DNA of 64,000 nt from Caprimulgus europaeus (Eukaryota > Chordata > Aves > Caprimulgiformes > Caprimulgidae). The notes under the pieces are model-generated. The model made no database searches. It was not told the origin of the DNA and worked only from the letters and a program-made list of their open reading frames with translations. The stretch covers positions 72,670,223 to 72,734,222 of the forward strand of contig OU015526.1 of assembly GCA_907165065.1 (NCBI GenBank), read 5' to 3'. The position numbers were made by a program, and so were the translations under genes. This document shows positions 13,301-16,300 of the stretch, one piece after another; positions within the stretch are counted from its first letter, which is position 1, and the number at the start of each line of letters is the position of its first letter.

Positions 13301-16300
13301 AGCAGCTGCCCTTTCGTCACTAGAACACATGACGTGCAAGAGCTAGCGTGCTTCCCAGAAGCACTCCAAGTTATGCTGATGAGAGACGGAAAGCTCTCCC
13401 TGCGCCCTGCCCCAAAATCTCTAGATGACAAAGGAGGAAGATCGTGTTATTCCATGAATACACCAAATGCTTGGACAGCAACCACTGTTCTCCCAGGCAG
13501 TGACAAGAGGTGCCAGCAGACTCAGATGGCTGCATTTACAGCCCGGATCTGGGCAGCTAGGTATTGTCAAGCCTTTAGCAGATTCTCTCCAGTGAATGCT
13601 AGCGGCTCGGTCTTGCGCATTGGTGAAGCAATTAAAAAAAAAAAAAAAAAGCGCACATTTCCGCTGTTCCCACGGTGACGGCTCAGTCTGTGGCTCGGGT
13701 CTGCTGCTCTCCGCCGGCGGGGAGGAGGCGGACAGCGGGACCAGCTGGGGAGGGCTCAGCGGGGCGGCAGCTCGCACTCACCTTAAGGTCGCGATGGACT
13801 ACACCCATCTGATGGCAGTGCAGCACAGCCTCCAGGATCTGCTGAATGCAATGACTGCGTGCAAACACCAGGGCCGCCCGTTAGTTCCAAGCGTGCGCTG
13901 CCCGCCCGCACGGCCGCAGCCAGGGGGCGGGGCCGGCGCCGGCCCGGGGGGTCCGCACTTCCCGGCCCGCTCCGCCCCGCGACGCTCAGAGCAGGACGGT
14001 CTCAGACAGCGCCGCGGCGCCGGGACTCCGCACGGGGGCGGCGGCGAGAGGCCCGCCCCGGAGACGTGCTTCGGGTCGGGGGCCTTTTGGATTTTTTGTT
14101 TGTTTGTTTTGTTTGTTTTTTGGAGTGTGGAGGGGTTAATTGATTGTTTTGATTTTGGTTTGTTTGGGTTTGGGTTTTTTTGTTTTCATTTGAGGTTAGT
14201 TTTAGGAATTTTGGGGTTTTTTTTCATGGATTTTTTTTGGTTGTTGTTTCTTTTTGGTCTCTTCTTGGTTTTTATTTGTTTTAATTAGTTTTAATTGCCA
14301 ATTTTAAAAACTAAATTGTCGGAAAAATGTACAAATTATTGAATTATTGCCAATAATTCCTTGACAAGGTCGCATTAAATATCTGGTCTTCTCTGTACTC
14401 CTTTCCTCACTTTTTGTTCTCTCTTGGAGATGACAGCAATTGTAGCGGTACCAAACCCAAACCCACCTCCAAGCAGGTATTTTAGGTAAATCATTAACTT
14501 CTGGTGGTTCAATTTAGACGGCAATTATCATCACTGGCCTGAGGGTTCGTCATACTCTAAGGCAGCCCCATGAGACCGGCTGTTCTGCTACTGCAACCCA
14601 GGGGTCGGTTCGCTAATCTGCTACTGCAACCCCAGGGTCTCAGAACAGACGTGGCGGTTAAATCTGCAAGCTGACATACATCACAGCCAAAAATTCACTT
14701 CAGTGTGTGTACACAGCAATAGATACACGGACAGCCTTAATAGAACACCAGACACGTTTGACAGCGTGGGTATAAATCCAGCGCCCTGGAAGGAGACAGG
14801 GCTTTTTTTGCAACCATTCCCCCTTTTGCCATGATGTATATTAGGCCTGTAGACTTGCAAACTGGAAAGAGGCGTCATGCATTACTGGTTCATCTAGTTG
14901 TTTTGAGGGTGCGTAGGATAGGCAAGGGAACATTGCAGCCAACCCACCCTCTGCCCCTACCCAGCAGGGAAAAAAATAAACAAAAACAAACCCCCAAACC
15001 AACTGATAAAAAAACACATATCCAATTGATGGGCACCAGATACTGACCTTCAGGTCTCTGTGAACTATGCCATTTAGATGACAATGATTAACACTTTCTA
15101 GAATCTGCTGTATACAATGACTGCAAAGATACAAGGGCAGAATGGAAGGGAGAACATTTTAAAGGAACATAATCACATTAAATACAAAATAAACTACAAC
15201 TTTTTTTTAAAAAAAGAACAAAAACAGTTTTACAACTCCTGACAAGTCTTGATTGCACACTGAACTGGAACAAACCCATGTTGAATACAAAGATGTTTCC
15301 AGCTCTAACACATCCAAAAATCAAAGCAAAACAAAACAACACCCCCTCCCAAAAAAACCCCAAACAACGAACAAAAAACCAACCAAACCAAAACAAAACC
15401 AAAAAGCCCAAAACAAAACCAAAAAGCCCAAAACAAACAAAAAAAAGACATTCGACACAGAACATACGACACCTATGAGACAGAATCGTTACGATTGTAT
15501 TTTCATTCAGCAGTATGGAAGCTTTTTCCAATTTCCAAAAACTGCTATAGGAAAAATAAAGTGGAAGGAATAAAACAATTAAGTCATATGGTTTGGATTT
15601 TTAAAGTTTTTACAATGAAGTTAACATTACAAATGCTGAAACAAGTGAATGTTCAGAAATGAAGTGATATACAGAAAACAAATGAAACAAATTCAAAAGC
15701 TAAGGAAAAGCAAAACATTTATTTGGAATCTAACAGTTTCTTAAAAACTATTAGTAGAATAGTTTTCTAAGTCATTCAAAAAGGTGGCATGCATTTTCAT
15801 TTAAAATATCATCAAGCACTAGTTTAGTTAGGAGTCACTCATGAAATGGAAATCCACATTAAAAATGCAGACAAGTGTTGGTACTTTAAATAATTTAATT
15901 ATCACTTATTTTTCCATGCCCAGGTTTGCAAGTTTTGGCCAGCCTACGATGCCAAAACATACAACTAAAGTATTCCTCTTTTAGAGGACTGGAAACTTTT
16001 CAGATGTTTTTCAGCACCAAAAGAGCTTTAAAAAATTTTTTTTAAAGATATCCTTGTGGCAGAAGTCCGTGACTGTTAGAAATACATACATAGTAGTCAA
16101 GGGCCAAGGATTTGATAGTGCTCATCCAAAATGTTTTGGACCATGGAATTCAGGAGGAATGGCCATAAATCAGTAACTGGAGCCCAAGCCTGAAAACCCT
16201 TTCTTATTCAAGTAGTCCACAACTCACTGAATGAGACTGCTTGTATGAGTAAAGACGACTTGTGTGAGTAAGGGCTTGCAGGAGCAGACCAGTGTTAACA

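What the first reader, a model, noticed from the sequence alone, without database searches (positions are those of the whole stretch)
13782..15120. Mutually exclusive duplicate of CAMK2D exon 6 encoding a paralog-type catalytic-loop variant
Exon 6 (15048-15120) and exon 6' (13782-13854) have equal length (73), equal entry and exit phase, and intact GT-AG sites. Exon 6 gives [12 protein letters not shown] (delta-type) and 6' gives [12 protein letters not shown] (alpha/beta-type). Double inclusion or double skipping breaks the frame. Nineteen of 24 residues are identical while 24 of 73 bases differ, consistent with long-term selection on the protein. A delta kinase able to swap its helix alpha-E into an alpha/beta form would be a new axis of CaMKII diversity, besides the known linker splicing. 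I do not know whether this is already described.
Basis: partly seen in the sequence, partly recalled or inferred. Interest (0 to 1): 0.92.

Follow-up and report, generated by a model that had tools for sequence, protein, structure and literature searches.

The report
Known CaMKII-delta kinase exon switch
A bird CaMKII-delta gene carries two alternative versions of one exon in its catalytic domain; the pair is real and ancient, and it is already annotated in human, birds and fish, so it is not a new discovery, although the same pair also seems to explain a difference between the CaMKII genes.

Summary
Exon 6 (15048-15120, minus strand) and 6' (13782-13854) are both 73 nt, with the same phase and GT-AG sites. 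They differ at 24 of 73 bases but only 5 of 24 residues. The claim of novelty fails. Proteins with the CaMKII-delta signature and the exact 6' peptide are in public databases for human, rat, cow, 27 bird species, turtles, frogs, lungfish and ray-finned fish. A published catalogue of human tandem-duplicated exons illustrates a CAMK2D event in the kinase domain, beside the ATP site (PMC9741552). 6' is not a recent CAMK2A insertion: the flanks do not align. One further pattern emerged. CAMK2B also has both exon types; CAMK2A of this bird has only 6'; no gamma with 6' was listed. The duplication therefore probably predates the split of these genes. That fate is described for FYN and CACNA1; I saw no CAMK2 account, though two relevant papers are not held. 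RNA splicing, tissue use and biochemical effect were not tested here.

The parts
17826..17891 (-). CAMK2D exon 5 (VTGGELF...EADAS), common upstream partner
   Evidence: AG/GT bounded, delta-type peptide
15048..15120 (-). Exon 6, delta-type [24 protein letters not shown]
   Evidence: 23 residues identical to PDB CaMKII delta chain 2vn9
13782..13854 (-). Exon 6', [24 protein letters not shown], the alternative copy
   Evidence: same peptide in delta-signature proteins of many vertebrates
13842..13854 (-). First 13 nt of 6', ending in an internal AG (TTCAG|CAG) that would allow in-frame double inclusion
   Evidence: translation; the same protein-level join in fish gene models P0001, P0002, P0025
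13880..13885 (-). ACTAAC: branch-point-like (also QKI-like; motif names recalled) hexamer about 27 nt upstream of 6'; hypothesis only
   Evidence: read; not tested
7335..7437 (-). CAMK2D exon 7 ([21 protein letters not shown]...), common downstream partner
1300..1383 (-). CAMK2D exon 8 ([27 protein letters not shown])

Best explanation
Exons 6 and 6' are an old tandem-duplicated exon pair of CAMK2D. Transcripts take one or the other, which swaps five residues in helix alpha-E and the turn before the catalytic HRD loop and leaves HRDLK unchanged (shown: sequence; inferred: RNA choice; helix names recalled). Exclusivity is most likely enforced by the reading frame, since 73 nt leaves remainder 1, double inclusion or skipping creates early stops and such RNAs would be removed by nonsense-mediated decay, plus regulated choice between a pyrimidine-rich acceptor (6) and a pyrimidine-poor one (6') (inferred). 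Steric clash is unlikely with 1,193 nt between them, and all sites are GT-AG. The duplication most likely happened before CAMK2B and CAMK2D separated. D and B keep both copies; A appears to keep only 6' and G only 6 (inferred from capped protein lists and one genome). The function is probably to give delta kinase two slightly different C-lobe cores in different tissues; the direction of the effect is unknown.
For: Splice sites, phase and length; 13 silent against 5 replacing codon differences. 6' against this bird's CAMK2A exon: 10 of 73 bases differ, 0 of 24 residues. The exact 6' peptide is in 167 of the 172 proteins listed; with the delta signature in 117 of 121, of which 111 also reach the hub domain. 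A human delta fragment (P0005) and a near full-length rat protein (P0012) carry it. P0003 is a 216-aa frame through 6' on a 1,175-nt contig, too short for unspliced exons, so transcript-like. Published human CAMK2D kinase-domain tandem exon event. CAMK2B: 117 of the 118 newly listed proteins have the beta signature with a 6-type exon, 49 of 172 earlier ones the beta signature with 6', and pipefish P0022 and P0023 have both in the order 6-6'. Against fly CaMKII (S, N, Q, N, V at the five sites), 6' shares the derived A, L and M in beta and delta proteins and alpha.
Against: No RNA reads were examined, so exclusivity and tissue use are unproven in this bird. Most database proteins are gene predictions. 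P0005 and P0003 leave the CaMKII sequence after about residue 200. I did not see the supplementary table naming the human exons in PMC9741552; the match rests on the kinase-domain description plus P0005. A mouse muscle development table lists other Camk2d and Camk2b events, not this one (PMC5577920, passage). The in-frame route through the internal AG means strict exclusivity is not forced. Delta exon 6 is as far from gamma's exon (5 of 23) as from 6' (5 of 23), and shares only one clearly derived residue (I132) with it, so a single '6' lineage rests mainly on order and on the shared 6'. CAMK2B and CAMK2G of this genome could not be searched.
Confidence: 0.9

Rival explanations
1. 6' is a fairly recent copy of a CAMK2A or CAMK2B exon that landed in the CAMK2D intron (DNA transfer or gene conversion), or an assembly chimera.
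For: The 6' peptide equals the alpha/beta peptide and lies in a GC-rich patch unlike its neighbours: 73% GC at 13680-14090 against 34-50% in the four neighbouring stretches measured.
Against: Similarity to this genome's CAMK2A stops near the exon edges (91-nt alignment); 10 silent differences have built up; delta-signature proteins of very distant vertebrates have the same exon; fish models place 6 directly before 6'. The CAMK2B flanks of this genome were not available.
Confidence: 0.03
2. 6' is a decayed or unused exon relic that is seldom or never spliced in birds.
For: Pyrimidine-poor acceptor (0.50 against 0.77 for exon 6); no RNA evidence from birds here.
Against: Open frame, intact GT-AG sites, and an unchanged peptide across vertebrates despite many silent changes; transcript-like contig for a mammal-type sequence (P0003).
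Confidence: 0.04
3. The two exons are alternative but not strictly exclusive: an internal acceptor in 6' yields an in-frame 6 plus partial 6' kinase with a 20-residue insertion.
For: Internal TTCAG|CAG gives an open frame through exon 7; three fish models use that join at the protein level.
Against: Those models are hypothetical proteins, and a predictor would favour any in-frame join; they are 3 of the 172 listed proteins.
Confidence: 0.03

Closest known systems
Human CAMK2D tandem duplicated exon substitution (Martinez-Gomez et al. 2022, PMC9741552)
   Same: Same gene; homologous exons inside the kinase domain, next to but not in the ATP site, mapped on 6ayw, as expected for exon 6/6'. Human protein P0005 carries the 6' peptide.
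   Different: Seen only in the main text and a figure legend; exon coordinates are in a supplement not read.
FYN exon pair (FynB/FynT) and its fate in SRC, YES1, FGR and FRK (PMC9741552 section 12)
   Same: Tandem exons inside a kinase; after gene duplication some genes keep only one copy.
   Different: FYN exons cover the SH2-kinase linker and ATP site; the CAMK2 pair covers helix alpha-E and the start of the catalytic loop, and two genes (B, D) keep both.
CaMKII variable-linker splicing (delta-A, -B, -C, -9)
   Same: Same gene, regulated splicing (PMC7991079, PMC4801060, PMC3302840, PMC13196872; passages seen).
   Different: Linker cassettes change targeting and spacing; this pair changes the catalytic domain. 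The passages I saw did not mention it.

Membership tests
Tandem duplicated, mutually exclusive exon pair | Adjacent homologous exons | tested here: met
   73 nt each, 49 of 73 bases and 19 of 24 residues the same, 1,193 nt apart; no third copy above shuffled controls in intron 5, between the copies, or after 6'
Tandem duplicated, mutually exclusive exon pair | Same phase and length, intact splice sites | tested here: met
Tandem duplicated, mutually exclusive exon pair | Double inclusion or skipping disrupts the product | tested here: met
   with the internal-AG exception
Tandem duplicated, mutually exclusive exon pair | Transcripts contain exactly one copy | not testable with these tools
   no RNA-seq; 165 of 172 listed database proteins have 6' alone, but most are predictions
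CAMK2D 6/6' event known from human | Human CAMK2D protein with the same 6' peptide | tested here: met
   P0005, (a 255-aa fragment that leaves the CaMKII sequence after exon 8)
CAMK2D 6/6' event known from human | Exon coordinates in the published catalogue equal exon 6 | not testable with these tools
   supplement not readable; text says kinase domain beside ATP site
Pair shared by CAMK2 paralogues | Both exon types present in another CAMK2 gene | tested here: met
   CAMK2B: 6-type rows, 6'-type rows, both in pipefish models P0022 and P0023
Pair shared by CAMK2 paralogues | CAMK2A keeps 6' only, CAMK2G keeps 6 only | tested here: inconclusive
   CAMK2A of this genome: no second copy; gamma with 6' absent from the best 120 of 8000 scored; alpha with exon 6 not searched

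The most novel reading that the evidence does not exclude
Vertebrate CaMKII genes descend from a gene that already switched between two exon 6 versions. CAMK2D and CAMK2B still switch (CAMK2B even in marsupials and platypus), while CAMK2A was fixed as 6' and CAMK2G as 6. Part of what is called isoform-specific catalytic sequence is therefore frozen splice choice, and delta and beta kinases can each adopt another form by splicing.
Probability: 0.7. Interest if true: 0.5.

Novelty: already known. Interest (0 to 1): 0.32.

Why it matters
The exon swap changes the catalytic domain of a kinase central to heart and brain, yet the CaMKII-delta splicing passages seen here deal with other exons. Anyone using one delta cDNA, or comparing delta with alpha or beta, should know which exon 6 it has. 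The family pattern gives a simple, testable account of a paralogue difference in helix alpha-E.

Tried and rejected
Recent transfer from CAMK2A: rejected, flanks do not align. Third copies or relics of the other exon in CAMK2A introns 5 and 6, window intron 5, the stretch between the copies and the intron after 6': none above controls (best hit 15.8 bits; 100 base shuffles gave a median best of 16.5 and a maximum of 21.2). RNA pairing between introns as a switch: the inverted repeats found are mostly low-complexity T/G against A/C tracts, so not counted as evidence. Gamma with 6': none in the best 120. Literature: ten searches; I opened 11 of the listed or cited papers, mostly as passages, and left the rest as listings. 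Of the 11, only PMC9741552 and PMC5740500 bear on the event. PMC4465641 has no hit for CAMK2, PMC8155201 none for 'exon'; PMC12487847, PMC12925949 and PMC5577920 name CAMK2D for other reasons. Two relevant papers are not held, so prior description of the family pattern cannot be excluded.

Full report
What is in the sequence. The window is part of CAMK2D on the minus strand of a 1.18-Gb genome in 121 contigs; delta-type peptides of exons 5, 6, 7, 8 and others are found. Exon 6 (15048-15120) and 6' (13782-13854) are both 73 nt, follow AG and precede GT, and enter and leave in the same phase. They differ at 24 of 73 bases. The 6' peptide with the next nine residues is identical over 32 residues to CaMKII beta and alpha chains in the PDB.

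Frame. With the annotated sites, 5-6-7 and 5-6'-7 read through; 5-6-6'-7 stops after 23 shifted codons and 5-7 stops after the residues PRTYF that follow the junction serine. One qualification: an AG 13 nt inside 6' would give an in-frame 6 plus 20 residues of 6', and three fish gene models (P0001, P0002, P0025) read exactly so at the protein level. They are hypothetical proteins, so this suggests that 6 precedes 6' in those fish, not that the product exists.

Origin within this genome. The 6' DNA has one other listed match in the genome, at C8:44428685-44428756 (a capped search). Neighbouring exons there are alpha-type, so it is CAMK2A (alpha signatures recalled). 6' and that exon differ at 10 of 73 bases and no residue, and the alignment ends near the exon edges. 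CAMK2A introns 5 and 6 hold no second copy above shuffled controls. So 6' is not a recent CAMK2A insert. Exon 6 DNA matches only itself, over 31 of its 73 bases. CAMK2B and CAMK2G of this genome could not be searched, because the protein request did not complete.

Other species. A protein search with a delta kinase carrying 6' scored 8000 candidates and listed the best 120. A second, with a gamma kinase carrying 6', listed a further 52. Of these 172 proteins, 165 have the exact 6' peptide as the only exon-6 peptide, 2 have it after another exon-6 peptide, and 5 lack the full peptide. With the delta signature, 117 of 121 have it, and 111 of those reach the hub domain. Names include Homo sapiens (P0005), Rattus, Bos, 27 bird species by my count of the name column (33 rows, all with 6' and the delta signature), turtles, Anolis, Xenopus, Protopterus, Amia and many teleosts. 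Several UniRef rows are named only as CaM kinase; there the delta assignment is by signature. P0003 is a 216-residue frame through 6' on a 1,175-nt contig, too short for genomic exons, so it looks like a transcript (or a processed copy). P0003 and the human P0005 leave the CaMKII sequence after about residue 200, so they are not full kinases; rat P0012 is close to full length.

Already described. PMC9741552 (abstract, passages and sections 5, 10, 11, 12) analyses 236 human tandem duplicated exon substitutions and illustrates CAMK2D on kinase structure 6ayw; its region crosses the domain and lies right next to the ATP site. Exon 6 ends at HRDLK, just before PENLLL, which fits. PMC5740500 (passage) counts four mutually exclusive clusters in human CAMK2D. 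I did not see the supplements, so the identity of the exons is a strong inference. Passages I saw in delta splicing papers (PMC7991079, PMC3302840, PMC13196872, PMC4801060, PMC12925949, PMC5577920) discuss the linker or 3' exons and not this one.

A family pattern. A third protein search used a beta kinase with a gamma-type exon 6 (best 120 of 8000). Of its 118 newly listed proteins, 117 carry the beta signature RKEAYGKP together with a 6-type exon such as [23 protein letters not shown], from gar, Erpetoichthys, many teleosts, marsupials and platypus; 1 is gamma-like. Other beta-signature proteins carry 6' (49 of 172), and pipefish models P0022 and P0023 carry both in the order 6-6'. In nine proteins picked by hand from 290, the gar and Erpetoichthys beta exon 6 differs from gamma's at 1 of 23 residues and from beta 6' at 8, whereas the rest of the kinase differs at 9-10 and 2-3 of 160. 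Platypus beta exon 6 is more diverged (5 of 23 from gamma, 9 from 6'). Against this, delta exon 6 is 5 of 23 from gamma's exon, 5 from 6' and 6 from gar beta exon 6.

Fly CaMKII has S, N, Q, N, V at the five sites: three agree with delta exon 6 and two with 6'. So S and N are probably old, and delta exon 6 shares only I132 as a derived residue with beta and gamma, while 6' in alpha, beta and delta shares derived A, L and M. The simplest account is one tandem duplication before B and D separated, with 6' inherited by A, B and D and the older type kept in B, D and G. No gamma protein with 6' was listed. I found no mention of this CAMK2 pattern in ten searches and the 11 papers opened, but two key papers are not held; the same fate is described for FYN, CACNA1 and PGM1 genes. 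Independent duplication or conversion between B and D is not excluded.

How it probably works. All sites are GT-AG and 1,193 nt lie between the exons, so neither intron-type incompatibility nor steric clash is likely. Frame plus decay of wrong products, with regulated choice between a good acceptor (pyrimidine fraction 0.77) and a poor one (0.50), is the most likely mechanism (inferred). The swap touches helix alpha-E and the turn before HRD (recalled structure) and leaves HRDLK as it is, so a modest tuning of the C-lobe is expected; direction and tissue are unknown.

Verdict. Observation confirmed; interpretation partly supported; the exon pair is already known. The shared history with CAMK2B is the part worth following.

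Noticed in passing
window 13680-14090: CpG-island-like patch around 6' (73% GC, CpG observed/expected 0.87) inside a more AT-rich intron; promoter use or exon-definition effect not tested.
   Followed up: partly
window 13842-13854: Internal TTCAG|CAG in 6' that would permit an in-frame double exon product; fish gene models show the same join at the protein level.
   Followed up: partly
P0022, P0023 and rows (protein database): CAMK2B of fishes, marsupials and platypus has an alternative gamma-like exon 6.
   Followed up: yes
window 14579-14639: Two 28-nt direct repeat copies 33 nt apart, 86% alike, in the intron between 6 and 6'.
   Followed up: no
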